Source of the DNA: a virus | Length of the DNA: 64,000 nt | Strand: one strand, 5' to 3' | IMG/VR virus record: IMGVR_UViG_3300026382_000012 | Location: 1-64,000 of that record | Part shown: positions 1 to 57,453 of the stretch, one piece after another | How positions within the stretch are numbered: the stretch's first letter is position 1 | Layout of the letters: each line of letters opens with the position of its first letter | Program-made: the position numbers and the translations under genes | The notes under the pieces: generated by a model | What the model saw: only the letters and a program-made list of their open reading frames with translations | Database searches by the model: none | Told to the model about the DNA's origin: nothing

Positions 1-411
1 GACAAAGAATATTGTTATTTTAGAAAAGGTGATCTATATGCATTAAGTATTGACATTCAGACTGGCGAGATTTCGTTTAAACCAGTTAAATTTATTATGC
101 GTCATAAAATAAATTTAAAAGAGAAAAAACTTTATAAAATTATTGGTAATCCTTACGGTGTTGTATATGTTACAGAAGATCATTCGTTAATAGTAAAACG
201 CGGCGAGAGATTTACTGTTACTACTCCAAGAAATTTACAACCGAATGACAAACTAATTTCATATACATTTGCTACAGACACAACCGAATATATTGATATT
301 AAAGATATCATAGACATCTCAAACGAGTTTAATGACGAGGAAATATATGTATATGACTTGCACGTAGAAGATAATAATACATTTCTAGCAGATAACTTTT
401 TTGTACATAAT
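1..411 (+). other. Mini-intein (C-terminal portion) at polymerase motif C
   Basis: Splicing blocks are visible: the block B signature VTEDHSLIV (T-x-x-H), then block F VYDLHVEDNNTFLADNFF and block G ending VHN, followed by extein Thr. The distance between blocks B and F is about 60 residues, too short for a homing endonuclease, so this is a mini-intein. Its first residue lies upstream of the window. The insertion point is YGD/TDS, a known intein site in family B polymerases. Confidence 0.88.
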
Positions 412-1293
412 ACAGATTCTCTGTTTATTCAGGTTTTTGATAAAAATGAGTTTAAAAAATTAGGTTATGAATTAAAAGCTGATAAAGAAGTAATAGATGA
501 AATAGAGAAGAAATTTGTCAAACCAATATCAGAAAAAATAAATACTGAACTAACGAATTATTGGAATAATAATTTACTTAATAAACTTAATATAGACCCA
601 GAATGGAATACTATTGATTTTAAAACAGAAATTGTAATGGATAAAATATTACTTTTAGGTGTTAAAAAGAGATATGTTTGTCGAATATATAAGGAAGATA
701 AAACATATTATATTCCACCAAAGTTAAAATTTACAGGTATAGAAATAAAAAGAAGCGATAGTTCAAGATTAACAAAATATGCGCTTCAAAAGATAATTGA
801 TATCATTTTTACTTTTGAAGACAAGAAAGAAAGAATACAAAAAACTAAAGAACTTGTATTGGACATTAAGAAGAAATTTGATGATGCTAAGAAGAATTAT
901 GATCTTGAACTAATTGGAATCCCATCGTCATGGGGAATTAAAGAATATGAATCTATCCCTACATATGTATATGGTGCTATGTTATATAACACTTTAATTC
1001 AAGATATATGTAGACCCGGCGTTAAAGGATATAGGATACATATTAAGCTAAATCTACCAAAAATAAAAAAGATAATCCAAGAACTGAAGAATAAATCTAA
1101 ATATCAATTTGATATTAAAACATTTGAGAAAGTTTCAAATAAACTTGATGTAATATTTATTCCACCTGAGTTTAACAGGGAAAAAATAAAACAATTGGAA
1201 AAAGATAAAATTATACAAATAGATTGGGATACGCAGTATAATAAAATCATTAGAGAAAAACTAGAAACATATATTGATATTGTTAAGGATTAA
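1..1293 (+). CDS. Family B DNA polymerase, C-terminal part (motif C and thumb), 5' end outside window
   Basis: The frame is open from base 1, so the gene begins upstream. Residues encoded up to base 411 are the end of an intein. The extein then starts TDSLFIQVF, which is the second half of the polymerase catalytic motif C (YGD/TDS), so the YGD half must lie upstream of the intein. The downstream part has the palm-to-thumb signature KKRYVCRIY followed by KFTGIEIKRSDSSRLTKYAL, then a thumb-like C-terminus (SSWGIKEYESIPTYVYG). Motifs A and B and the exonuclease are absent and lie in the next gene at 1299. The two parts together would make one replicative polymerase. The 3' portion of the protein is thus encoded before the 5' portion, 5 bases apart. 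Identity as PolB is strong; how the parts assemble is inference. Confidence 0.9.
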   Translation, partial: DKEYCYFRKGDLYALSIDIQTGEISFKPVKFIMRHKINLKEKKLYKIIGNPYGVVYVTEDHSLIVKRGERFTVTTPRNLQPNDKLISYTFATDTTEYIDIKDIIDISNEFNDEEIYVYDLHVEDNNTFLADNFFVHNTDSLFIQVFDKNEFKKLGYELKADKEVIDEIEKKFVKPISEKINTELTNYWNNNLLNKLNIDPEWNTIDFKTEIVMDKILLLGVKKRYVCRIYKEDKTYYIPPKLKFTGIEIKRSDSSRLTKYALQKIIDIIFTFEDKKERIQKTKELVLDIKKKFDDAKKNYDLELIGIPSSWGIKEYESIPTYVYGAMLYNTLIQDICRPGVKGYRIHIKLNLPKIKKIIQELKNKSKYQFDIKTFEKVSNKLDVIFIPPEFNREKIKQLEKDKIIQIDWDTQYNKIIREKLETYIDIVKD

Positions 1294-1298
1294 TACCG

Positions 1299-3728
1299 AT
1301 GGATAATAAAGTAAAAAACATACCACCGTATAGATTCTACTTTCTGGATTATAATCCAGAACAACAATTAGCACTTTTTTATTATAAAGAAAGAATAAAT
1401 CAAGATAATTATACTACCGATCAATATATTAAAAAAATATTTTTGGATATTGAAGTATTTACAGAATTTGAGAATAAATTTCCTGAGCCAAAACACGCCG
1501 AAAAACCTATTAATGCTGTTACATTAATAAATGATAAAAGCGATATTGATATTTTATTCTTATTGCATAAAGACATTGTAAATTTTGACAGAGAAAAGAT
1601 AATTGAAAACATTATAAATAACTCAAAAAAAGAATACAATTTTGAAATTAATAATCTTAATATGTATGTGTTTGATGATGAAAGCGATTTAATATATACT
1701 ATGTGGAATATAATTCACAATTATGATCCTGCAATTTTAGTAGGATTTAACTCCGATTACTTTGATTTTCCATATATTGTGAGAAGAACAATTAATTTAT
1801 TTGGATATGAAGACGCGGCGCAATTAATAACTAAATTTAATGAATTTAATATATCAGGATTTAATATTTCAATACCAGATTTTCAATTAGTAGATATTTT
1901 AAAGATGTATAAACCAGGTGAAGGTTTTGGCTTTGGAAAAAATTTAGAAAAATTTAATCTTGATACTGTTGCCGAAGAAGAGTTAGGCGTCAAAAAAGTA
2001 GAACATGAAAATATATCATTAGATGAGTTATACATAAATGATCCGGAAAGATTTATTTATTACAACATGATTGATACATATCTAATTTATATGTTGGATA
2101 AGAAATTAAAACATTTTGACTTATTTAACGCACAACGCAGAATATCTTTCTGCCCTGTTTCAAGAGCATATCATGGTCGCTCCGTTATGGGCGAACAGAT
2201 ACAAACCTATAATATGTTAATTAACGAAAATAAAGTTCCAAGATCTTATCTAGTTAAAGAAAAATACGCAGTTGATGATAATGAAGATGAATTTAAGAAA
2301 TATTCACTTTCACTTTCATACTACGGTGCTTATGTTAGAGATCCAATTAGAGGAATATATGATGGGTTAATTATAGACTTAGACCAATCATTAACAGGTG
2401 ATCAATTAATTGTTATTAAAAGAGACGGTATAGCATTAGAAATACCTATAGGAAAATATGAATACAAGGAAGGTGATGAAACATTAACATTAGATCATAA
2501 TAAAAAGGTTTGTTGGAAAAAAGTAAAAGGCGTTATAAAACACAAAAACAAACATAAGATTTTAAAGATAAAGACTAAATCCGGTAAAATAATTAAAATC
2601 ACCGATAATCATTCTATTTTCATATATAGAAATGATAATATCGAATTAATTAAGGCAAGCGAATTAAAACATGGTGATAAAGTAATAACTATTGTAGGAT
2701 TTGATGAATTGATCAATACAGATAAAATTATTGAAATAGAAGTAATAGAAAAGAAAAAAGCGAGATATGTTTATGATATTTCAGTAGAAGACACTGAAAG
2801 ATTTTTTGCTAGAGATCCAGAATCAAATGGTTATATATTAGTACACAATACTTCAATGTATCCTTCATTGATTAAAATGTATAATATGGAATATAGTACA
2901 TATAAAGCCAAATTATACAATAATACAATATATGGTTTCATTAATGTTTTAAGGAAATTTATTAATAATGAAGATAAGACACTAACAACAGATATTATTG
3001 TTAACGCAATACAAAAACAATTATTACAATACTTGAAAAACCATACTACCAGTTATAAAAATTATTACAAAAAGAATATGTTATACATAACAAATATAAT
3101 TGAAACATTGAAAAATAGCGGATTTACTTTTGAAGAAATAATTTCTAATAAGAATTATTATCTTCTAAAGACAAAATTAGTGCCGTTATTAGAAATTGTT
3201 GAGCTAATACTTTCTGATGAATACAATAATATTATATACGATTATTTATTTATGGAATACACAGATTTCGTTGAAAAATATAGAAATATAAATTTTTACT
3301 TATTAGATAGCCCGACTGATAGTTATTCTCAATTAAAAATATTAAGTTTTGAAGAATTAATAGATGAATATTTAAAGAAGTATATAATCACAATTACTGG
3401 TTGTTTATTTATTAAACATTCAGAAAAGACCGGTTATATTATTCAATTGATAAATAAATTAATGAAAGAAAGAAAGCAATTAAAGAATAAATTAAAAGAA
3501 ATTGACCCTAACACAAAAGAATATGAACTTATGTATCGCACACAGTTAAGTATCAAAGTTCTTCTAAACTCACTATACGGAATTTATGGTTTAACTACAT
3601 ATAGATACAATGAGAAAAATATAGCAAACGCTATTACTATTTCAGGTAGAGTTCTAATTAAAACAGCTCAATATGTTGCAGATAGAACAATACAAGAATT
3701 TAAGAATAACGTTCTATCTTTCAATTAA
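1299..3728 (+). CDS. Family B DNA polymerase, N-terminal part (3'-5' exonuclease, motifs A and B), with mini-intein
   Basis: Replicative polymerase fragment of 809 aa, about 655 aa after intein removal. The exonuclease domain shows ExoI (FLDIEVF near residue 49), ExoII (VGFNSDYFDFPY, 148-159) and ExoIII (YYNMIDTYL, 254-262). Motif A is split: catalytic Asp362-Gln363 precede the intein and TSMYPS follows it. Motif B is KVLLNSLYGIYG near residues 744-755. The protein stops about 50 residues after motif B, just before motif C would be expected; motif C and the thumb are in the gene directly upstream. No sequence between motifs is obviously missing, so a two-subunit polymerase is the simplest reading. 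Confidence 0.92.
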   Translation: MDNKVKNIPPYRFYFLDYNPEQQLALFYYKERINQDNYTTDQYIKKIFLDIEVFTEFENKFPEPKHAEKPINAVTLINDKSDIDILFLLHKDIVNFDREKIIENIINNSKKEYNFEINNLNMYVFDDESDLIYTMWNIIHNYDPAILVGFNSDYFDFPYIVRRTINLFGYEDAAQLITKFNEFNISGFNISIPDFQLVDILKMYKPGEGFGFGKNLEKFNLDTVAEEELGVKKVEHENISLDELYINDPERFIYYNMIDTYLIYMLDKKLKHFDLFNAQRRISFCPVSRAYHGRSVMGEQIQTYNMLINENKVPRSYLVKEKYAVDDNEDEFKKYSLSLSYYGAYVRDPIRGIYDGLIIDLDQSLTGDQLIVIKRDGIALEIPIGKYEYKEGDETLTLDHNKKVCWKKVKGVIKHKNKHKILKIKTKSGKIIKITDNHSIFIYRNDNIELIKASELKHGDKVITIVGFDELINTDKIIEIEVIEKKKARYVYDISVEDTERFFARDPESNGYILVHNTSMYPSLIKMYNMEYSTYKAKLYNNTIYGFINVLRKFINNEDKTLTTDIIVNAIQKQLLQYLKNHTTSYKNYYKKNMLYITNIIETLKNSGFTFEEIISNKNYYLLKTKLVPLLEIVELILSDEYNNIIYDYLFMEYTDFVEKYRNINFYLLDSPTDSYSQLKILSFEELIDEYLKKYIITITGCLFIKHSEKTGYIIQLINKLMKERKQLKNKLKEIDPNTKEYELMYRTQLSIKVLLNSLYGIYGLTTYRYNEKNIANAITISGRVLIKTAQYVADRTIQEFKNNVLSFN
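2388..2849 (+). other. Mini-intein at polymerase motif A
   Basis: 154 residues from Ser364 to Asn517 of the N-terminal polymerase protein. Block A is SLTGDQLIVIKRDG, block B is KITDNHSIFIY (T-x-x-H), block F is YVYDISVEDTERFFA and block G is ILVHN, followed by extein Thr518. There is no endonuclease domain. Splicing would restore DQ-TSMYPS, the catalytic motif A, so the polymerase should be inactive until splicing occurs. Confidence 0.92.
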
Positions 3729-4010: not shown

Positions 4011-4038
4011 GTGCGGGCGTTCTTTTTCTTGTCCGCAC
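4011..4038 (+). terminator. Hairpin with 8-bp GC-rich stem
   Basis: GTGCGGGC at 4011-4018 pairs with GTCCGCAC at 4031-4038 (one G-U pair) around a 12-base pyrimidine-rich loop. It stands out in AT-rich sequence and precedes the next gene by 25 bases. It could be a terminator or a leader structure; no clear U-run follows it. Confidence 0.5.
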
Positions 4039-4492: not shown

Positions 4493-4883
4493 TAGCTGGA
4501 AAGACAGATTGAAACACAGAATTTATCTTTTATTATTTGGCAGAGATGATTTAGTTGATATTTTATCAGACATTCTCATACAAATAAGAAGTTTTATCGA
4601 ACGGTGCAAATACAGAAACAAAATAGAAATAGAAGAAATGTTTTATGATGAATATTATGATGTATTTAGGAAGTCACTAAGCACATACAAACAGTTGTAC
4701 ATAGATTTAGATGTAAATAGAGATAAGATAATTAAATTAATTAGTAAAAATAAAAGTATTGAAAAAGTAATAAACGAAATTATTGATAATAATAAAAAAT
4801 TAGAGGTTATTTTTAATTTATTGTTAGATAATAAAATAGATGATATTTGGGATACTTTGACTAGTTTGAAAGGAGGCCACTAA
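4470..4883 (+). CDS. Unknown helical protein, about 137 aa
   Basis: The ATG at 4470 (MKTVELLDSW) is chosen because TGAGGA sits 7-8 bases before it; an in-frame ATG at 4455 lies upstream of that site. It overlaps the previous gene by 23 bases and its TAA shares an A with the ATG of the QueD gene, so it sits in an operon. It is helical and charged, of the same type as the preceding gene product. Function unknown. Confidence 0.65.
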   Translation: MKTVELLDSWKDRLKHRIYLLLFGRDDLVDILSDILIQIRSFIERCKYRNKIEIEEMFYDEYYDVFRKSLSTYKQLYIDLDVNRDKIIKLISKNKSIEKVINEIIDNNKKLEVIFNLLLDNKIDDIWDTLTSLKGGH

Positions 4884-5680
4884 TGTACACAATTAAAAAG
4901 AAATTTATGGTTGATCTGGCGCATATTGTGCCGACTCAACAATTTTTTAATCCTAAATATGAATGTAAATGTAGAAATATACATGGACATACCTTCACAA
5001 TCATTCCTATAGTAAAAGCAAAAAAATTAGATAAAAATACCAGAATGGTAATAGATTATACTCTATTTAAGCCATTTAAAGATGTTCTAGATAAATTTTT
5101 TGATCATAAATTTATAATCTCAGATAGAATACCTAACTATGAAAAAGTAGTTGATCTAATAAATCAAGTCAAATCTATATGCAACGGTAATGAAGGCAGA
5201 TATAGTAAAGCAATGATAACATATAAATCTATTACATTAGATAAAATTTTACTTACGAATATAGATAACGTAACTATTGTACATTGGGATAGCACCACGG
5301 CAGAAGATATGTCGCATTTTCTTCAATATATACTAGCAGATGAACTAATTAAAACTTTTGAAATAAGACAAGAAATTAGCATATCAGTAGCAGTTAAAGA
5401 AACACCGAATAGTTTTGCAGTATATAATAAACCATATACAATTGTGCCGAGTATTAGACTTGCATTAAGAAGGATTAATAGATTACCAGAGAAAGAAAAA
5501 ATATATGTTATAATCAATAATTTTATTCCATATGTAAAGAGGAACAATAATTTATATCCATATGTTAAGGATATCATAGATAAGATAGAATTGTTGCGCA
5601 AAAAACATTCGAATCAGAAACACATTTCTATACTAGTTGATAGATTGTTAAATGAAATAAATATGTTGAAAATTACTTAA
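4883..5680 (+). CDS. queD: 6-pyruvoyl-tetrahydropterin synthase / QueD family (6-carboxytetrahydropterin synthase)
   Basis: QueD makes 6-carboxy-5,6,7,8-tetrahydropterin, the second step to preQ0. Zinc ligands are visible at His14 (DLAHIV) and His34/His36 in CRNIHGH, with catalytic Cys30 in the C-x3-HGH arrangement. MVIDYTLFKPFKDVLDKFFDHKFI matches the conserved Asp/His segment, TAEDMSHFL the PTAE-like helix and VKETPNS the substrate-binding Glu loop. At 265 aa it is twice the usual bacterial length, with about 55 extra residues between FDHKFI and TAED and a C-terminal extension of about 80 residues of unknown role. AAAGGAGG precedes the start. QueC and an amidotransferase lie about 11 kb downstream. 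Confidence 0.88.
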   Translation: MYTIKKKFMVDLAHIVPTQQFFNPKYECKCRNIHGHTFTIIPIVKAKKLDKNTRMVIDYTLFKPFKDVLDKFFDHKFIISDRIPNYEKVVDLINQVKSICNGNEGRYSKAMITYKSITLDKILLTNIDNVTIVHWDSTTAEDMSHFLQYILADELIKTFEIRQEISISVAVKETPNSFAVYNKPYTIVPSIRLALRRINRLPEKEKIYVIINNFIPYVKRNNNLYPYVKDIIDKIELLRKKHSNQKHISILVDRLLNEINMLKIT

Positions 5681-16025: not shown

Positions 16026-16052
16026 ATAAAAAAAGAGAGAGAGGTTATGAAA

Positions 16053-16811
16053 ATGTCAAAGAAAGTTGCGATTGTTTATTCGGGCGGATTAGATTCTTTA
16101 GTAACAGCACATTTATATCATTCATTACAATATGATGTAACATTAATACATTATACATATGGCCAATATGCACAGAATTTTGAATTAGAATATACTAAAA
16201 AATATGCTGATTATATCAAGGCAAAATTAGAAATCATAGATGCCAAAAAAATATTTGAACCGTTTAGTGAAATATCTACATTATTAAATAAAGAAAGAAA
16301 TGAAGATGAATTAAGAGAAGCAGAATCTGATAGTAACTATGTTCCTATGAGAAATTTGATATTGATTTCTTATTCGGCCGCTATTTGTGAAAAATTAGGA
16401 ATAAATAAATTAGCATATGGTGCTAATGTAACTGAATCAGGAAATTATCCAGATAATTCAGTTAGATTTTTTGAGAATTTAAAATCTACATTAAAAACAT
16501 CTGGCAAACAAGGATTTAAGTTAGAATTGCGGGCGCCGTTAATAAATTTAACTAAAACAGAAATAGTTAAATTAGGTTATTATTTCGATGCTCCGTTTGA
16601 GCTATCATTATCATGTTATTATCCAACTGAGGATGGTAAACATTGTGGTAAATGTGGTTCATGTTTATTAAGAATTAATGCATTTAAAAGAGCTAATATA
16701 AAAGATCCTGCTATGAATGATATAGATGATGAAACTAAAGAATTAAAATATATTGACAAATTACAGTTAAAAGAAGAAGTAGAAAGACTTCTTAAATATA
16801 TCGAAGTTTAA
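16053..16811 (+). CDS. queC: QueC, 7-cyano-7-deazaguanine (preQ0) synthase
   Basis: Converts 7-carboxy-7-deazaguanine to preQ0 with ATP and ammonia. The PP-loop SGGLDSLVTAHLY is at the N-terminus, SNYVPMRN(L) near residue 95, and the zinc site at the C-terminus is LSCYYP followed by HCGKCGSC (four Cys). The ATG at 16053 is 8 bases from GAGAGG and gives a normal QueC start; an ATG at 16047 is only 2 bases from it. Its stop overlaps the next ATG. QueD is 11 kb upstream and a class II amidotransferase 0.7 kb downstream. Confidence 0.93.
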   Translation: MSKKVAIVYSGGLDSLVTAHLYHSLQYDVTLIHYTYGQYAQNFELEYTKKYADYIKAKLEIIDAKKIFEPFSEISTLLNKERNEDELREAESDSNYVPMRNLILISYSAAICEKLGINKLAYGANVTESGNYPDNSVRFFENLKSTLKTSGKQGFKLELRAPLINLTKTEIVKLGYYFDAPFELSLSCYYPTEDGKHCGKCGSCLLRINAFKRANIKDPAMNDIDDETKELKYIDKLQLKEEVERLLKYIEV

Positions 16812-25749: not shown

Positions 25750-25863
25750 TCCTCCATTCCTACTTAAACTTATTAAAAATTAAGTAGGAATTTTGGAGCA
25801 CGGAGATTCATAAAGAACCTCATTACTACCCACTATCCCTTTAGATAGGGATTCGTGGGATAC
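25750..25863 (-). ncRNA. Predicted omega RNA scaffold of TnpB element 1
   Basis: On the minus strand, a nested stem (TCCCACGAATCCC ... GGGATAGTGGG) is followed by TAGTAATG and a long hairpin GCTCC...ATTCCTACTTAA / TTAAGTAGGAATGGAGGAGC at the element end. The order and TAGTAATG match element 2. It overlaps the TnpB 3' end. The guide would start just beyond the hairpin, in flanking DNA. Confidence 0.6.
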
Positions 25864-27240
25864 CTTTAAAAGTAGGTTATATAATGAACTCTGAATATCA
25901 GACATAAATATTCTTATAGGTCTCGCTAACTTATCCAGCCAAATATTAAAAGGCAAACAATTAACTATATCCTTTCTGACTTTCTTAATGATGTTCAAAG
26001 CGCCGTTGCAATCGGCATTCCAGATTTTATTAAGTTTTAAATCTTTGAAAAGACCTCTTTTTATTCTCTTGCCGTTATAAGATTCTTTCTTTGATGGTTG
26101 TTCAGTTAAAGCTGAACATTTAGATGTATAAGATTCATCTACTTCCACAACTTTAATACCGAATTTCTCACATTTGTATTTTAATTGCTCAATTAACATT
26201 CTAAAAGGCAAATAAACAAAATTTTGATTTGTTCTATCACCCAAATTAATTTCTTGTTTACTTTCAATTGCAGATTTACCTATTATAACATGCTTAATAC
26301 CAAATAATAGAAATAAGGTAACTAATTTGGATGTAATTTGATGGAACATACTTTTAATTCTTCTTGCTCTATAACGTTCTAATTTACGCCTCAATATTTT
26401 ATTTTCTCTTGATTGTAACTCAGCTTTGATTTTATTATACCATTGATTAAACGACTTAAACTCTTTACCATTAATTATTAATGACTTAAATTCTGGATGA
26501 TTGGAAACAATAGTCATGAGATTATCTAGTCCTAAATCTATACCAGCTACATATTTATCGTTCTTTATATTAGATAATTTAGGAATGTGTATTTTATATA
26601 CTACCTGTATGTAATAGTCGTCTAATTTCTTAACAACTCTCACAGAAGTGATTTTTTCCTCAAAATATTTAGGTAATTTGATTTTAATATTGGATTTTTT
26701 TGAATTTAATTTTAGTTGTATTACTCTACCTTTAGCTGATTCTATAATTTTAAATACTAAACTGCTAAATTCAATAGAGCAATTATTGACTCTTTCTATT
26801 TTCTTTGGTATTGGTGGTTTTGGCGGTGATTTAAATTTTGTTGGGTCTTTCTTATATTCATGAATAGCGGCGAAATATGATTTATAATTATTTGCTATTT
26901 CTTTGATTAATGCTTGAAATAAAGCATTGCCTAAATATTCTTTAATATTCTTTAGTTGTATATACAATTGTTTGTTTATACTGTCTGTTAATAATTCAGT
27001 TTCATATTGTTTCTTGAGTGAGATTTTCTTACTATAATCGCCACGGTTATAAATTTTACCAGTAAATAGTAAATTAAGATTTTGCAATGTTATACCTATT
27101 TTGACAAAAAATTTAAAATTTCTATTGATTAATAAATAAAACATATTCTTTGCATGGACATATGTCTTACATAACTTCATAACTTTCTTCTTTCTATCAC
27201 CTCGAATTCTGATTTCCAGAATATGGTTGATTGTCTTCAC
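25780..27240 (-). CDS. tnpB: TnpB RNA-guided nuclease (element 1)
   Basis: 486 aa. RuvC-I Asp is in GIDLGLDNLMTIVSN and RuvC-III Asp in NADCNGALNIIKK. The canonical RuvC-II Glu position reads HVIIGKSAIES (Gly), while an E-x-YTS motif (VDESYTSKCSAL) follows, as in TnpBs with a rearranged catalytic Glu. The usual four-Cys zinc finger is missing and replaced by GKRIKRGLFKD. GTG start, overlapping the recombinase frame. Reading frame intact although the partner recombinase is dead. The last about 25 residues are translated from the omega RNA region. Confidence 0.88.
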   Translation of the reverse strand: MKTINHILEIRIRGDRKKKVMKLCKTYVHAKNMFYLLINRNFKFFVKIGITLQNLNLLFTGKIYNRGDYSKKISLKKQYETELLTDSINKQLYIQLKNIKEYLGNALFQALIKEIANNYKSYFAAIHEYKKDPTKFKSPPKPPIPKKIERVNNCSIEFSSLVFKIIESAKGRVIQLKLNSKKSNIKIKLPKYFEEKITSVRVVKKLDDYYIQVVYKIHIPKLSNIKNDKYVAGIDLGLDNLMTIVSNHPEFKSLIINGKEFKSFNQWYNKIKAELQSRENKILRRKLERYRARRIKSMFHQITSKLVTLFLLFGIKHVIIGKSAIESKQEINLGDRTNQNFVYLPFRMLIEQLKYKCEKFGIKVVEVDESYTSKCSALTEQPSKKESYNGKRIKRGLFKDLKLNKIWNADCNGALNIIKKVRKDIVNCLPFNIWLDKLARPIRIFMSDIQSSLYNLLLKVSHESLSKGIVGSNEVLYESPCSKIPT

Positions 27241-45877: not shown

Positions 45878-46522
45878 ATGTCTAATAAATACTACACAAC
45901 TAAGGAATTTATGCAAATTACCAAAATACCGAAATCTACTCTTTATAAGTATATAAAAGAAGGTAAAATAACACCTTATAAATTACCAAATAAACAATAT
46001 AGATTTACAGATGAACACATAGAACAAATATTAAATATACATAAAAATATAGCTGATAATCATATGAAACTTAATATTATTTATGCGAGAGTTTCAAGTC
46101 AAACGCAGAAAAAATATATACAAAATCAAATTAAGTACTGCAAAGAATTTTGTATAAAGAACGGAATAATTATTAATGATATTATATACGATATTTCATC
46201 CTCATTTAATTTTAATCGGCCCGGATTATTAAAAATCTTAAAATTATTAAAAGAAAATAAAATCAATAATTTAATAGTATACAGTAAAGATCGTTTAACA
46301 AGATTAGCTTTTGATTTGTTTGATAATCTATTCAAAATATATAATGCGAATATAATTGTAATTGACAATTCAGATATTCCTATAGATGAATTAGATAGAA
46401 AAGATTTAATTGACGAGTTAGTATCATTTATTCATTATATAACTTCTAAAATATATGGAAAACGAAAATATACTAAAAGCAAATTGAAGGAGATAATCAA
46501 TGAAGAAATTAAGAAGAGTTAA
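45878..46522 (+). CDS. tnpA: IS607-family serine recombinase TnpA (element 2)
   Basis: 214 aa. N-terminal MerR-type helix-turn-helix (YTTKEFMQITKIPKSTLYKY), then the resolvase fold with catalytic Ser in IIYARVSSQTQ, and the conserved VYSKDRLTRLAFDLFDNLF arginine helix. The C-terminus is basic (GKRKYTKSKLKEI). AAGGAGG is 7 bases before the ATG. It overlaps tnpB by 23 bases, as in element 3. All core residues are present, so it is probably active. Confidence 0.9.
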   Translation: MSNKYYTTKEFMQITKIPKSTLYKYIKEGKITPYKLPNKQYRFTDEHIEQILNIHKNIADNHMKLNIIYARVSSQTQKKYIQNQIKYCKEFCIKNGIIINDIIYDISSSFNFNRPGLLKILKLLKENKINNLIVYSKDRLTRLAFDLFDNLFKIYNANIIVIDNSDIPIDELDRKDLIDELVSFIHYITSKIYGKRKYTKSKLKEIINEEIKKS

Positions 46523-47816
46523 GCAAATTTTTAAAACAAAGAAATCGCTATATCATAAAGTTGAAAAAATTATGTGTTCATTTAACATAATTAAAAATGA
46601 AATGTATAATCTTGTTAATTATTATTATGATAAAACAGGTGATATTAAACCTTTTATAACTGGTAGAAATTTATATTACATAATTACTGGAAATAAAACA
46701 CTACCATATCATGATCAAAACATACAACAAATATTAAACAATATACGAAATGCACAAATAATAAATCAAAAAGTAAAAACTGATATTATTAATATTGCAT
46801 GTGAAATAATTAGGCGCGAATTGAAATCTGTCGTAGGTAAATGGAAGAAAGGTCAAAAGGCTTCCTTGCCAAAACAAAAGAATTTTAATGATTTATTTAC
46901 GTATTCATTAGAAATACCAAAACGAATGATTAAGGATTTAAGAAAAAGAAAGAGAAAACCTGAAAATGCAATATTAATTACTATTCAAAAAGGCATTTAT
47001 ATTAAACTTAAAATTGATAAAAAATTTCCAAATATTAATTGCATAACAATTATCTGGAAAAGAGATATTGGTGTATACTTTAATATTATTTATGAAATAA
47101 ATCAAGAAGATATTGCATTAAATAAAGATAATTGGATATCAATTGATTTAGGAATTAATAACTTCGCATCAATAGTTTCAAATCATATAGATTCTATTAT
47201 TATCTCAGGCAAAAATTTGAAATCTTTTAATCAATGGTATAACAAATTATATGCTAAATTACAAACAAAAGGTAATGATAAATTGAGAAGAATATTAACT
47301 GATTATCGTAAACGAAGAATTAAGATGTTTTATCATAATACTGCAAATAAGATTATAGATATCTGTTTGGATAATAATATAGGTAAAATTATAATAGGCA
47401 ATCCAACTACATTGTTTCAGAAAAAATCTAAATATTCTAAGAAATCAAACCAAAATATTAGAATGGTAAATTTAGGAAAATTTATTAATATTTTAAGATA
47501 TAAATGCGAACAATTTGGTATAGAATTTCATATTGTATCTGAAAATTATACATCTGTTTTGTCATCAATTACCGAAAATATCACAACATTTACATATGAA
47601 TATCTAAAATCGATATATAGCAAACTCAAGAAAAATCGTATTAAAAGAGGTCTTTTTAAAGACCATAAAATTAATAAAGTTTTTAATGCAGATTTAAATG
47701 GCGCATTAAATATAGCTAAACAAATAATAACAAATTTACATAAATTAATTCAAGAACAATTAGATATATACATTGATAAAATTTCTAGGGCAAATAAATT
47801 AGTAATATATTTTTAA
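46500..47816 (+). CDS. tnpB: TnpB RNA-guided nuclease (element 2)
   Basis: 438 aa. RuvC-I Asp in WISIDLGINNFASIVSN, RuvC-III Asp in FNADLNGALNIAK. The canonical RuvC-II Glu site reads KIIIGNPTTLF (Gly), while E-x-YTS is kept (SENYTSVLSS). No zinc-finger cysteines; IKRGLFKDHKINK occupies that place. It is the shortest and most diverged of the three TnpBs here, and its stop precedes the RNA scaffold without overlap. Confidence 0.87.
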   Translation: MKKLRRVKQIFKTKKSLYHKVEKIMCSFNIIKNEMYNLVNYYYDKTGDIKPFITGRNLYYIITGNKTLPYHDQNIQQILNNIRNAQIINQKVKTDIINIACEIIRRELKSVVGKWKKGQKASLPKQKNFNDLFTYSLEIPKRMIKDLRKRKRKPENAILITIQKGIYIKLKIDKKFPNINCITIIWKRDIGVYFNIIYEINQEDIALNKDNWISIDLGINNFASIVSNHIDSIIISGKNLKSFNQWYNKLYAKLQTKGNDKLRRILTDYRKRRIKMFYHNTANKIIDICLDNNIGKIIIGNPTTLFQKKSKYSKKSNQNIRMVNLGKFINILRYKCEQFGIEFHIVSENYTSVLSSITENITTFTYEYLKSIYSKLKKNRIKRGLFKDHKINKVFNADLNGALNIAKQIITNLHKLIQEQLDIYIDKISRANKLVIYF

Positions 47817-48995: not shown

Positions 48996-49103
48996 ATCCA
49001 TCCTCCTAATCTCCTACTCAATAATAATCTAACATAATACTTTGAGTAGGATTTCGGAGGACAAAGTAACTACCGTCCCAGGCCCTATATCAGGTTCCTG
49101 GTT
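48996..49103 (-). ncRNA. Predicted omega RNA scaffold of TnpB element 3
   Basis: Minus strand: nested stem CCAGGAACCTGATATAGG / CCTGG, GGTAGTTAC, then the hairpin TCCTCCGAAATCCTACTCAA / TTGAGTAGGAGATTAGGAGGA at the element end. It overlaps the last codons of TnpB. The guide would read TATTTTGATC and onward, into the interrupted gene. Confidence 0.6.
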
Positions 49104-50485
49104 GCTTTTAATTCATTAACAATAAGTGAAATATTAGATTGTGTTAAAGTTGTTATATTAAACTTAATTGGATTTGCTAATTTAATTAATTTTAGTTTAT
49201 CAGAAAAATTTTTAAATGCGTTTTTATAAACGCATCTGATTATGTTAAATGCACCATTAATATCAGCATTCCATATTTTATTGATTTTAGGATCGAAATA
49301 AGAACCTCTGCCGTATTTACGATATATATGTTTTTCATATATTTTATTAGTAATTGCAGATTTAGCACTAGTGTAATACTCTTCAACTATAGTTACTTTA
49401 ATACCATATTTTTCACCTTTATATTTCAATTGATTTATTAAAACCGAAAATGGTATTGAATAAAAATTCTGGTTATTTCTACTGCCAAGATTAATATTTT
49501 GTTTAGCAGAAGGCAAATCACCTATTATTATTTCATTTATTCCGTATTGTTTACATATTTGAATAATTTTATTTGTAATCTGATGAAATACACTCTTAAT
49601 TCTTCTATTTCTATATGCAAATAATTTGCGATACATATAAATTAAGTCTTTCTTTTTATCTTTATCAGTTTCCAAATCTATTTTACTTCGTAATTTGGCT
49701 AAATGTTTATTTGCCCACTGATTGAAAGATTTAATTTCATTACCGGAAATTATAAAACTTTTTAAATTAGGATTATTACTTATTGCAGAAATCAAATTAC
49801 TAATACCTAAATCTATACCTAATTTGTAATTTCCAGTAACATTTTCAAATTCTGATAAATCAACTTCATAATAAATATCCAAATAAATATCAGTTAAAGA
49901 CATTCTAATACCAAATGTTTTTATATTATTTGGATCTATATACTTTAGTTTACTAAATTTGATATTAAAATGTAGATTTTTATCTTTTGTAGGTTTAATC
50001 AAATAAGTATTATCATCAATAAGTTTGAATTGCCTATGACAAAGTATATAATTTACATTGATTATTTTATCAAGCTTTTTAGGACGAGGTATACCAGGTT
50101 TATTTTCTATTTTACCATTTTTATACTTTTTAAGCAATGCAAAATAACTTTTATATTCTTTATCTACTTGTTTATTGGTAGCTTGGAAAAAATCACTGCC
50201 ATTATGTTTGTAAATATTTTGGATATTATTTATAATATTTATTAGTGATGAATCTAATTGAATTAACTGATCGATTAACTCTTTATCTCTACAATTTGCA
50301 ATCTTATCTCGTTGTTTTAAATCGAGATATTTAGATGTTAATTCAAAATATTTATTTATAAGTATGTAAAGTAAGTTTTTAAGATGTTGAAATCTTAATA
50401 AAGAAGAGCGGGCGATCTTTTTCTTATCACCCCGCAATCTAACAGATAAAACATACTTAACTTTCTTTTTCTTCAATTCCGACAT
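49085..50485 (-). CDS. tnpB: TnpB RNA-guided nuclease (element 3)
   Basis: 466 aa. RuvC-I Asp in LGIDLGISNLISAISN, RuvC-III Asp in WNADINGAFNIIR. The canonical RuvC-II site is EIIIGDLPSAKQNI, where Gly again stands in place of Glu; E-x-YTS is kept (VEEYYTSAKSA). The zinc-finger cysteines are absent. N-terminal RLRGDKKKIARSSLLRFQHL resembles RIRGDRKKKVMKLCKTYVHA of element 1, so these two are closest relatives. It overlaps tnpA by 29 bases. Confidence 0.88.
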   Translation of the reverse strand: MSELKKKKVKYVLSVRLRGDKKKIARSSLLRFQHLKNLLYILINKYFELTSKYLDLKQRDKIANCRDKELIDQLIQLDSSLINIINNIQNIYKHNGSDFFQATNKQVDKEYKSYFALLKKYKNGKIENKPGIPRPKKLDKIINVNYILCHRQFKLIDDNTYLIKPTKDKNLHFNIKFSKLKYIDPNNIKTFGIRMSLTDIYLDIYYEVDLSEFENVTGNYKLGIDLGISNLISAISNNPNLKSFIISGNEIKSFNQWANKHLAKLRSKIDLETDKDKKKDLIYMYRKLFAYRNRRIKSVFHQITNKIIQICKQYGINEIIIGDLPSAKQNINLGSRNNQNFYSIPFSVLINQLKYKGEKYGIKVTIVEEYYTSAKSAITNKIYEKHIYRKYGRGSYFDPKINKIWNADINGAFNIIRCVYKNAFKNFSDKLKLIKLANPIKFNITTLTQSNISLIVNELKATRNLI

Positions 50486-51095
50486 CTTTTAATACCTCAT
50501 CTTTTAATTTTTTAATTTTTCTATAATTTCGTGTACCGTAAATCTTCATAGCATAAAGATGTATTATACGTACTAATTCTTCTACAATATCTTGTACTCT
50601 GTCATATTTAATACTATCTTGATTTATAACTACCAATTCAATACCTAATATATCAAATAATGTTTTAAATAAATCAAAACCAATTCTAGCTAATCTGTCT
50701 TTATCAGCAATAACAATTCTTTTCGGTTTATAAATATAACATGTTTTTAGTAATTCTTTTAATCCTTTTCTATTAAAATTAACAGATGAACCAATATCTT
50801 TAATTATTTTAGATATTTGCCAACCATTAGCAATGCAATATTTTTCACAATATTCAATTTGATTTTCTAGATTATTCTTTTGTTTAGTTGTTGAAACTCT
50901 ACAATAAATAATTGTATCGTAATTTTCTGATATATCTTTCTTTATTTTACCTAATTTATATAGTGTTTTTAAATGTTCATCTGTATATCTTCTTTTGCCA
51001 CCAGGCGTACGCAATGGATTAAGAATATTATCATAACGACGCAAAGTTGAAATGCTTAGACCAGTTAATTTAGAAAATTCTTTTATATTATACAT
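50457..51095 (-). CDS. tnpA: IS607-family serine recombinase TnpA (element 3)
   Basis: 212 aa. MerR-type helix-turn-helix (IKEFSKLTGLSISTLRRYD), RTPGGKRRYTDEHL wing, catalytic Ser in YCRVSTTKQK, then DIGSSVNFNRKGLKELL and ADKDRLARIGFDLFKTLF. AGGAGG lies 6 bases before the ATG. It shows no lesion and serves as the template for recognising the decayed copy in element 1. Confidence 0.9.
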   Translation of the reverse strand: MYNIKEFSKLTGLSISTLRRYDNILNPLRTPGGKRRYTDEHLKTLYKLGKIKKDISENYDTIIYCRVSTTKQKNNLENQIEYCEKYCIANGWQISKIIKDIGSSVNFNRKGLKELLKTCYIYKPKRIVIADKDRLARIGFDLFKTLFDILGIELVVINQDSIKYDRVQDIVEELVRIIHLYAMKIYGTRNYRKIKKLKDEVLKDVGIEEKES

Positions 51096-54400: not shown

Positions 54401-55081
54401 ATGTGGGAAGCAGAAACCTTTTATACATACACAGTAGCTTATAATATTAATAAAAATGTAAACATTAAAAAAGAACATTTAATTAAATTTATAGAATTAG
54501 TAGAATATTTTTCGGAAACTATAAACTTATATATAAGAGCATTCTATAAAACTCTAGTAACAGTAAAATACGATGGTTTAGTTATTAAACTGATATTCGA
54601 TAAAAATATGACACAAAGAGAATATGATGAATTAATTGATAAATTAGATAAAATTACGCCTCAAGAATTAAGAAATTTCTTTCACAATCAAATTACAAAA
54701 AATGTAGTTGAATACATAGAAATATTAGATTACGAATCAATCAAAATAGTATTTAAAAACTTAACTACTTATATTTTAAGTATTGATGACATAAATAACT
54801 TTAAAGAGGGATATCGTCCGGAAAAATCCGTATTTTTGTTAAATAAGAGAAATCCGAATAATACTGAAATAATCAAAATAGTAGATAGGTTATCAAAATT
54901 ATTTAATCATTATTTCTTAGTAATCGATAATATATTACTTATATATAACGATAGTTTAGATATATTAAAGATAATTACCCCTATTGACAAAATAAAAATT
55001 AATGATATAATTAGTCAGTTGACTTTTGAAAAGTTTACTCTAGAGGAACTGAATAATTATGAAAAACTCCGTGCGCTTTAA
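54401..55081 (+). CDS. Unknown protein, 226 aa, type A copy 2
   Basis: About half of its residues are identical to the 56018 product (KEHLIKFIELVEYFSETINLYIR versus REHLTKFIELVEHFSGTINLYIR segments). Overlaps the following type B gene by 23 bases. The conserved core includes a helix-strand N-terminus and the VIDNILLIYND hairpin. No known motif. Confidence 0.66.
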   Translation: MWEAETFYTYTVAYNINKNVNIKKEHLIKFIELVEYFSETINLYIRAFYKTLVTVKYDGLVIKLIFDKNMTQREYDELIDKLDKITPQELRNFFHNQITKNVVEYIEILDYESIKIVFKNLTTYILSIDDINNFKEGYRPEKSVFLLNKRNPNNTEIIKIVDRLSKLFNHYFLVIDNILLIYNDSLDILKIITPIDKIKINDIISQLTFEKFTLEELNNYEKLRAL

Positions 55082-55808
55082 ACAAACATTATATATAATT
55101 TTAGATAAAGAAAATCTATTAATATACGATAAAGATAAGATACTAAAAATCAATATAAAAGAAATCGAAATCGATGAAATATCTTATTTTAAAAAACACA
55201 TCCTGAAATTATCATACAATAATAAAATATATTACGAATTTGAGTTTAGTAATTATAGAAATAATAGACAAAAAAAATTATCAATAGAGTATTGTACGAA
55301 TAATGATAATATTGTAGATGTTGTTAATAAAATAATGAACAAAAAATCCATAATACCATTTATGTATTATATAGCAAATGCAAAAATAGATAACTTAAAT
55401 GTTATTATATCTGAAGACAATGATAATATAATCGAAATTAATGGAATCACTTTACGTGCACCGCGCATTAAAACATCATATGATATAAGTTATTTTGCGT
55501 CGTCAACGTACATTCGTTATTTATGTATAAATACATATTCTGATAAAATACACAATAAATTGGGAGAGATATCGAAAAAAATAATAGATAAAATAAGTAA
55601 TTTAAACATTCATAGTCCAATATTTACAATAGATTTTGATTATATAGTTTTTGAGAGCAGAATATTCTTCGTATTAAATAATTATATACGAGAAATAAAG
55701 GATGAATTAGATATACAAGAAATAATATTAATGTTTATGAAGAAAATGTTTAACTTAAAAATAAATGATGAAGAGCATACATCATTACTTAAACTAATGA
55801 TGCAATAA
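55059..55808 (+). CDS. Unknown protein, 249 aa, type B copy 2
   Basis: Close to the 56692 product: YTILDKENLLxxD start, YFKKHILKxSYNNKIxYEF, YYTNNDNIVxVVNxIMN and DYIVFExxIFFVLxxYIREIK are shared. Alpha/beta with a regular strand pattern. It begins inside the preceding gene. Function unknown; sequence drift without stops suggests both copies are maintained by selection. Confidence 0.66.
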   Translation: MKNSVRFKQTLYIILDKENLLIYDKDKILKINIKEIEIDEISYFKKHILKLSYNNKIYYEFEFSNYRNNRQKKLSIEYCTNNDNIVDVVNKIMNKKSIIPFMYYIANAKIDNLNVIISEDNDNIIEINGITLRAPRIKTSYDISYFASSTYIRYLCINTYSDKIHNKLGEISKKIIDKISNLNIHSPIFTIDFDYIVFESRIFFVLNNYIREIKDELDIQEIILMFMKKMFNLKINDEEHTSLLKLMMQ

Positions 55809-55830
55809 ACTACTTTAAAGGAGGTAAACG

Positions 55831-56005
55831 ATGGAAAAGAAAGTTAAGTATATTGTTAAAAAGAGTTGTACTAGGTCGTACATGATACGGTGATAAAGGT
55901 GTTTATAAAATGGAAACAAATAGACTATATGACACATACGAAGAAAAATTATTAGAAATTATCAAAGAAACCCCAAATCAAGATGGTCTACTAAAGAAAT
56001 TGTAG
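55831..56005 (+). pseudogene. Small frameshifted gene between the two A-B modules
   Basis: An exact extended RBS (55808-55824) leads to ATG 55831 and MEKKVKYIVKKSCTRSYMIR, then TGA. In another frame YGDKGVYKMETNRLYDTYEE continues to QDGLLKKL and TAG at 56005. A single indel would join them into a protein of about 58 aa. Alternatively they are two tiny genes (ATG 55910 starts the second). This is all the 209-base gap contains. Confidence 0.4.
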
Positions 56006-56017
56006 GGAGAAGTTGCA

Positions 56018-56689
56018 ATGTGGAAAGTAGAAGCTTTTCATTCATATATAGTGGCTTACGACATTAATGAAAATATAAATGTAAAAAGAGAACATTTAAC
56101 TAAATTTATAGAATTAGTAGAACATTTCTCAGGAACTATAAATTTATATATAAGATTATTCTACAAATTTTTAGTGTTGATAAAATGTGACGACTCAATT
56201 ATTAAAATAATGTTTGATACTAGTATAACGCAAAATGAATACAATGAATTAATCGATAAATTAGATAAAATCACGCACCGACTAAAAGAAATAGGAAATT
56301 TCTTCCATAATCCAGTCACAAAAAATATGGTCGGATATATAGAGATATTAGACTATAGATCAATCAAAATAGTATTTAAAAATTCAACTACTTATATCCT
56401 AAATATTGATGATATAAATAACTTTAAGGAAAAAGTAATACATAAAAAATCTATATTATTACTGAATAAGAATAATCCAAATAATGTTAAAATAATTAAA
56501 ACAATAGATAAATTATCGAAATTATTTAATCATTACTTCTTAGTAATCGATAATATGTTACTTATATATAACAATAGTCTAGATGCGTTAATAACAGTTA
56601 TCTCTATTGATAAAGTAGAGATTGACGATGTGATTAAACAATTAACTTTTGGATTATTTACCTCAAAGAACCTCAAAGGAGTTAAGTAG
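56018..56689 (+). CDS. Unknown protein, 223 aa, type A copy 3
   Basis: MWKVEAFHSYIVAYDINENINV start, paralogue of the 54401 product (MWEAETFYTYTVAYNINKNVNI). The end is shortened and altered (FGLFTSKNLKGVK) and contains the ribosome site of the next gene (CTCAAAGGAG). GGGAGAAG precedes the ATG. Confidence 0.66.
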   Translation: MWKVEAFHSYIVAYDINENINVKREHLTKFIELVEHFSGTINLYIRLFYKFLVLIKCDDSIIKIMFDTSITQNEYNELIDKLDKITHRLKEIGNFFHNPVTKNMVGYIEILDYRSIKIVFKNSTTYILNIDDINNFKEKVIHKKSILLLNKNNPNNVKIIKTIDKLSKLFNHYFLVIDNMLLIYNNSLDALITVISIDKVEIDDVIKQLTFGLFTSKNLKGVK

Positions 56690-56691
56690 CT

Positions 56692-57453
56692 ATGAAAACC
56701 GCACGCCTATACACAATATTAGATAAGGAAAATCTACTAGTAAATGATAGTAACGAAATACTAAAAATTAATATAGAAGAAATAGTTGATGAAATGGGTT
56801 ATTTCAAGAAACATATTTTAAAATCATCATATAATAATAAAATATGTTACGAATTTAAATTTAACGAGTATGGAAATAGTAGACCGAAGAAATTATCAAT
56901 AAAATATTATACAAATAATGACAATATTGTAGAAGTTGTCAATGAAATAATGAACGAAAAATCTATAGTAGCATTTATATATTACATAGTTAATGCAAAA
57001 ATAGACAAACTAAATGTTACTATATCTGAAGATAATGGAGTCATAATTAAAACCAACGAAATAACTTTACACGCGCCGCATATCAAAGCATTATGCAATA
57101 CAAATCATTCTATTTTGTCATTTGCATTGCCATCAACATTTATAGCAAACACACATATTTGTAGTCTATGTATGAATACAAATTTTAGTAAGGCATATAA
57201 TAAATCAGACAAAATAACAAGAAAAATAACGGATAAAATAAACAGTTTAAATATACACAAACTAACATTTACAATAAGCTTTGACTATATAGTTTTTGAA
57301 GATAAAATATTCTTCGTATTACATGACTATATACGAGAAATAAAAAATGACGCGGATATACAGGAAATAGCATTGTTATATATAAAGAAAATGCTTAACT
57401 TAAAAATAACTGATGAGGAATACGCCACATTGTTTAAATTATTGATGTTGTAA
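56692..57453 (+). CDS. Unknown protein, 253 aa, type B copy 3
   Basis: Paralogue of the 55059 product, with a short insertion (SFALPSTFIANTHIC region near residue 140). It ends LFKLLML, with the stop 1-3 bases from an exact extended RBS (57453-57469). Two Cys residues near 157-161 (ICSLC) form a CxxC that the other copy lacks. Confidence 0.66.
   Translation: MKTARLYTILDKENLLVNDSNEILKINIEEIVDEMGYFKKHILKSSYNNKICYEFKFNEYGNSRPKKLSIKYYTNNDNIVEVVNEIMNEKSIVAFIYYIVNAKIDKLNVTISEDNGVIIKTNEITLHAPHIKALCNTNHSILSFALPSTFIANTHICSLCMNTNFSKAYNKSDKITRKITDKINSLNIHKLTFTISFDYIVFEDKIFFVLHDYIREIKNDADIQEIALLYIKKMLNLKITDEEYATLFKLLML

What the first reader, a model, noticed from the sequence alone, without database searches (positions are those of the whole stretch)
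1..3728. Split family B DNA polymerase with reversed gene order
The upstream gene encodes the C-terminal part (TDS half of motif C, thumb) and the gene 5 bases downstream encodes the N-terminal part (exonuclease, motifs A and B). The N-terminal protein stops just before motif C would be expected. Split polymerases are known, but usually with the parts in protein order. Here the order is inverted, which fits either a two-subunit enzyme or a circularly permuted arrangement.
Basis: partly seen in the sequence, partly recalled or inferred. Interest (0 to 1): 0.75.

Follow-up and report, generated by a model that had tools for sequence, protein, structure and literature searches.

The report
Two-piece phage DNA polymerase, pieces swapped
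A deep-branching T4-type phage appears to build its replicative DNA polymerase from two separately encoded proteins, listed in the genome back to front, each with a self-removing insert (intein) sitting on one of the two active-site motifs; the parts are of known kinds, but I found this arrangement in no other phage examined.

Summary
Gene 1 (1-1293, open at the contig edge) carries TDS of motif C, palm and thumb. Gene 2 (1299-3728) carries exonuclease, motif A, fingers and motif B, and stops about 10-14 residues before motif C. Both belong to the T4 gp43 family.

Gene 1's "half motif C" is the end of an intein (HN|TDS) whose first ~23-37 residues lie off the contig. Gene 2 has a complete 154-residue mini-intein at motif A (DLDQ|S...HN|TSMYPS).

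Best explanation: a two-subunit polymerase. Each precursor splices in cis, then the two chains assemble one active site. Gene 2 has no N-intein piece, so it cannot trans-splice to gene 1.

Of 246 other T4-type PolB loci, 207 are one frame and 39 split; none is C-first. A clade of 28 loci is split at the same place; the tree rejects common ancestry of that split with ours (p 0.0008, long-branch caveat). Both ends meeting at the swapped junction are unusually short.

Gene 1's start is off the contig and no near relative was found, so a complete first polymerase is not excluded. New variant of a known kind.

The parts
1..411 (+). Intein at motif C (137 residues seen; about 23-37 N-terminal residues lie upstream of the contig), insertion site D|TDS, blocks TEDHS, VYDLHVED and FFVHN present
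   Evidence: Pfam Intein_splicing 23-155 and TIGR01443; solved phage PolB intein 9hth_A, E 2.6e-11; alignment with SCTP-2, CC_R7
412..1293 (+). C-subunit extein: TDS of motif C, palm, thumb (293 residues), stop at 1291-1293
   Evidence: DNA_pol_B, phrog_262 573-837; Foldseek match to RB69 gp43
1285..1289 (+). Shine-Dalgarno-like AAGGA for gene 2, inside the end of gene 1
   Evidence: sequence
1299..2387 (+). N-subunit: short N-terminal lead, 3'-5' exonuclease, palm up to DLDQ of motif A
   Evidence: DNA_pol_B_exo1, phrog_262 105-399; RB69 and T4 gp43 in PDB
2388..2849 (+). Complete mini-intein (154 residues) at motif A, DLDQ|SLTGD...LVHN|TSMYPS
   Evidence: Intein_splicing, TIGR01445, TIGR01443 over cut-off; alignment
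2850..3728 (+). N-subunit, second part: rest of motif A, long fingers region, motif B (NSLYG, about 3567-3581); ends SFN* before motif C
   Evidence: DNA_pol_B 98-204; alignment

Best explanation
A two-subunit, T4 gp43-type family B DNA polymerase encoded C-subunit first. Gene 1 probably starts roughly 100-200 bases upstream of base 1 and encodes a short lead-in with the Asp of motif C, a cis-splicing mini-intein, then TDS, palm and thumb. Gene 2 encodes exonuclease, motif A with its own cis-splicing mini-intein, fingers and motif B. After both inteins remove themselves, the two chains assemble non-covalently into one polymerase whose active site takes one catalytic Asp from each chain. Shown: domains, inteins and their visible catalytic residues, split site, order, single copies in the contig. 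Inferred: start of gene 1, splicing, assembly, activity. Speculative: that the order arose by tandem duplication and loss of complementary halves, or by moving the C gene.
For: Both genes match one enzyme family in complementary stretches without overlap. Only one N part and one C part in 85.8 kb. Gene 2 has intact exonuclease, motif A and motif B columns but no motif C, so it needs a partner. It ends in the same loop where a clade of 28 loci is naturally divided into two genes, whose C gene starts about 25 residues before TDS. Close spacing and a ribosome-binding site for gene 2 in the end of gene 1. Split gp43A and gp43B of phage 25 are reported to co-purify and polymerise (PMC2988022).
Against: The start of gene 1 is not visible, so a complete polymerase there is not excluded. 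No near relative shares the order. Both ends at the junction are shorter than in relatives, which could also mean decay. Splicing and assembly were not tested; the N-chain model is poor outside the exonuclease.
Confidence: 0.7

Rival explanations
1. Gene 1 is the end of a complete intein-bearing polymerase and gene 2 is an additional, partial copy that lost motif C and thumb.
For: Gene 1's frame is open at base 1. Gene duplication happens in this genome: two neighbouring genes at 54401-55808 are repeated at 56018-57453, 67% and 63% identical.
Against: Gene 2 keeps conserved exonuclease, motif A and motif B columns and a complete intein, and ends at a natural division point. No second N part or remnant in the contig.
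Confidence: 0.13
2. Trans-splicing: the motif C intein is split and gene 1 starts inside it, its N-intein piece being on another gene, as in the fractured polymerase genes of Aes516, F379, VPALA and MIJ3.
For: Split inteins at motif C are common in T4-type phages (PMC6892783).
Against: Gene 2 ends without any N-intein piece and none is found elsewhere in the contig. The intein frame of gene 1 reaches base 1, far upstream of where those inteins are divided.
Confidence: 0.06
3. Assembly artefact or decayed locus: the C gene and N gene are not neighbours in the real genome, or the locus is a rearranged remnant.
For: Gene 1 sits at a contig edge; the order is unique in the survey; both facing ends are short.
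Against: The ribosome-binding site of gene 2 lies in the end of gene 1; no repeat beyond background at the junction; even composition; long intact frames.
Confidence: 0.09
4. A circularly permuted single-chain polymerase made from both frames.
For: Gene order is that of a permutation.
Against: Stop codon, different frames and a separate ribosome-binding site at the junction.
Confidence: 0.02

Closest known systems
Split gp43A/gp43B of Aeromonas phages 25 and 44RR (Petrov et al. 2010, as reviewed in PMC2988022)
   Same: T4-type polymerase in two genes; the phage 25 chains are reported to co-purify and polymerise without being joined
   Different: Genes named in protein order; an untranslated spacer or homing endonuclease lies between; the related Aes516 gp43A ends in the fingers region, before motif B
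Aes516 gp43A/B1/B2, F379, VPALA and MIJ3 split-intein polymerases (fractured genes)
   Same: T4-type polymerase divided at motif C, with inteins of related sequence
   Different: They carry N-intein and C-intein on the two halves, in protein order, and (VPALA, F379, MIJ3) genes in between; insertion site after DTDS in Aes516, F379 and VPALA
Salicola phage SCTP-2 polymerase
   Same: Intein at the same place, D|TDS
   Different: One polymerase gene, cis intein, no split
Two-gene polymerases of an IMG/VR clade (L132-L176, found here)
   Same: Divided in the same loop between motif B and motif C
   Different: Protein order, no inteins seen at motifs A and C, full-length ends; tree rejects a shared origin of the split
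Archaeal split PolB of Methanobacteriales and Nanoarchaeum equitans (PMC4104785)
   Same: Family B polymerase in two genes, connected with inteins
   Different: Cellular PolB3; in N. equitans the halves are non-adjacent and could be trans-spliced

Membership tests
T4 gp43-type family B DNA polymerase | Exonuclease, palm motifs A, B, C and thumb of the gp43 family | tested here: met
   phrog_262 covers both genes in complementary parts; RB69 and T4 gp43 in PDB
T4 gp43-type family B DNA polymerase | N-terminal domain before the exonuclease and clamp-binding tail after the thumb | tested here: not met
   At most 18 residues before the exonuclease model start against at least 68 in 205 loci; tail 15 against a median of 28; no separate N-terminal domain in the contig. 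These are accessory parts, and gene 1's start is unseen
Two-subunit (split) polymerase | Complementary chains in separate frames, no complete copy | tested here: inconclusive
   Met for all visible sequence; gene 1's start lies beyond the contig edge
Intein (class 1) | N-terminal nucleophile, TxxH block, C-terminal HN followed by Thr, Ser or Cys | tested here: met
   Motif A intein: S...TDNH...VHN|T. Motif C intein: TEDH and VHN|T seen, first residue off the contig
Split-intein fractured gene | N-intein piece at the end of the N-terminal protein | tested here: not met
   Gene 2 ends without intein; none elsewhere in the contig
Two-subunit (split) polymerase | Chains assemble into an active enzyme | not testable with these tools
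   needs expression; no two-chain modelling tool

The most novel reading that the evidence does not exclude
The locus passed through a tandem duplication followed by complementary loss: gene 1 kept motif C and thumb (perhaps with the missing N-terminal domain at its unseen start), gene 2 kept exonuclease to motif B. The result is a gene-permuted two-chain polymerase in which each chain must remove an intein from its own catalytic motif before one active site can form.
Probability: 0.15. Interest if true: 0.6.

Novelty: new variant of a known kind. Interest (0 to 1): 0.42.

Why it matters
It suggests that the T4-type polymerase has been cut in the loop between motifs B and C more than once (here and in a separate viral clade), marking a natural division point of the enzyme. 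It is the only case in this survey where the halves are adjacent but in reverse order. With one intein on motif A in one chain and one on motif C in the other, activity would need two separate splicing events plus assembly, a natural test of how inteins persist in essential enzymes.

Tried and rejected
Near relatives that would show the sequence upstream of base 1: single-protein scans of IMG/VR with both halves and the terminase found nothing; alignment-based scans found only distant loci (about 22-31%, short motif B stretches up to 38%); GTDB genomes gave three distant hits. Closing the circle with the contig's right end: it is an unrelated minus-strand gene. Motif C or N-intein in other frames after gene 2, a second polymerase copy, a separate N-terminal domain: none. 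Known RNA families in the window: none. AlphaFold of gene 2 was good for the exonuclease only, probably because the intein upsets the alignment, so it was not used further. The first quick tree placed ours beside CC_R7 with support 0.28 and was not used.

Full report
OBSERVATION. The window is bases 1-64000 of an 85,766-bp IMG/VR virus record, and base 1 is the edge of that record. Gene 1 is open at base 1 and ends at 1293. Gene 2 runs from ATG 1299 to the stop at 3728. Gene 1 matches the palm-thumb part of family B polymerase (Pfam DNA_pol_B 264-356; PHROG 262 positions 573-837). Gene 2 matches the exonuclease and the palm-fingers part up to motif B (PHROG 262 positions 105-399, and PHROG 1918). 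No other piece of polymerase lies in the contig.

Residues 1-137 of gene 1 are an intein: Pfam Intein_splicing positions 23-155, the intein C-terminal model TIGR01443, and a solved phage polymerase intein, 9hth_A, at E 2.6e-11. By its letters 9hth_A looks like the Aes516 intein (compared by eye). Our intein ends FFVHN and is followed by TDS, so the insertion site is D|TDS, as in Salicola phage SCTP-2. Compared with other inteins, about 23-37 N-terminal residues are off the contig. Gene 2 carries a second, complete intein of 154 residues at motif A: DLDQ|SLTGD...LVHN|TSMYPS (residues 364-517, bases 2388-2849). It scores above the curated cut-offs of both intein end models and of Intein_splicing, and its length leaves no room for an endonuclease domain. 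The two inteins are 27% identical.

SPLIT SITE. In the alignment gene 2 ends 10-14 residues before the Asp of motif C, in the loop between the helix that follows motif B and the motif C strand. It has no N-intein at its end, and neither motif C nor intein sequence follows in any frame. So gene 1 and gene 2 cannot be joined by a split intein as in Aes516, F379, VPALA or MIJ3 (PMC6892783). The intein frame of gene 1 reaches base 1, well upstream of the point where those inteins are divided.

COMPARISON. Loci were gathered with alignment-based scans of IMG/VR, one of GTDB genomes, and named phages. Polymerase parts were placed in order with two profile models. Of 246 loci with both parts, 207 have one frame and 39 are split; all 39 run N then C. 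Some of the splits may be sequencing errors or introns, and loci of one clade are not independent, so these are counts, not rates. Twenty-eight of the 39 are split at the same place as ours and lie in one clade (L132-L176; the tree used a sample of them). In the ten of them read in detail the C gene begins about 25 residues before TDS (for example MKHIEDTPWWICDPEDTNYVAYSDTDS) and the N gene ends near ...NRHINKVIKNEIEL*. In some of them another gene lies between the halves, such as a GIY-YIG nuclease or a PLP-dependent enzyme, so there the halves behave as separate cistrons. In an IQ-TREE tree ours is a very long branch (2.6-2.7 changes per column). A clade of ours plus that group is rejected (AU p 0.0008, log-likelihood difference 25.9). 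With so long a branch this is good but not final evidence that the same cut arose twice.

THE JUNCTION. A Shine-Dalgarno-like AAGGA (1285-1289) for gene 2 lies in the last codons of gene 1; the frames differ and a stop intervenes, so no permuted single chain is made. Repeats around the junction are of background length and composition is even, which speaks against a chimera. The two ends that meet here are unusually short. Ours has at most 18 residues of open frame before the start of the exonuclease model, against at least 68 in 205 loci. Gene 1 has 15 residues past a fixed point of the thumb model, against a median of 28; the only two others that short among 239 frames run off contig ends, and the rest have at least 24. 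The missing N-terminal domain is not elsewhere in the contig (best 8.6 bits, against 18-59 bits for left-out controls). This would fit a recombination that joined a C-terminal part to an N-terminal part and trimmed both. Tandem duplication does occur in this genome: two neighbouring genes at 54401-55808 are repeated at 56018-57453, 67% and 63% identical. The origin remains speculative.

MECHANISM. Each precursor would splice in cis, giving ...DLDQTSMYPS... in the N chain and ...DTDS... in the C chain. The chains would then build the palm together, one catalytic Asp from each. Split gp43A and gp43B of phage 25 are reported to co-purify and polymerise (PMC2988022), so assembly without joining the halves is plausible. 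Splicing, assembly and activity are inferred here. The C-half model (mean pLDDT 59; about 65-94 over residues 141-300) matches RB69 gp43 in Foldseek. The N-half model is only good for the exonuclease.

LIMITS. The start of gene 1 is not in the record and no close relative was found. If gene 1 turns out to be a complete polymerase, gene 2 is an extra partial copy; I give that 0.13.

VERDICT. A real and uncommon arrangement of known parts: new variant of a known kind, interest 0.42.

Noticed in passing
L132-L176 (28 IMG/VR loci): A clade of T4-type phages whose polymerase is two genes cut between motif B and motif C, with differing genes between the halves in some (GIY-YIG nuclease in L146, PLP-dependent enzyme in L159).
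   Followed up: partly
window 54401-57453: Two neighbouring genes repeated in tandem (67% and 63% identical proteins), unknown function.
   Followed up: partly
window 25780-27240, 45878-47816, 49085-51095: Three TnpB-like genes, two of them next to an IS607-type serine recombinase with MerR-like domain.
   Followed up: no
window 4883-5680 and 16047-16811: QueD-like (PTPS) and QueC genes, suggesting 7-deazaguanine modification of DNA or nucleotides; QueC also lies near the polymerase in Campylobacter phage CC_R7.
   Followed up: no
window 4011-4038: Strong hairpin GUGCGGGCG...UGUCCGCAC downstream of the polymerase genes (z -4.9), no known RNA family.
   Followed up: partly
L016 (VPALA) and L017 (F379): Polymerases divided by split inteins at motif C that the public records list only as separate DNA polymerase and hypothetical genes.
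   Followed up: partly
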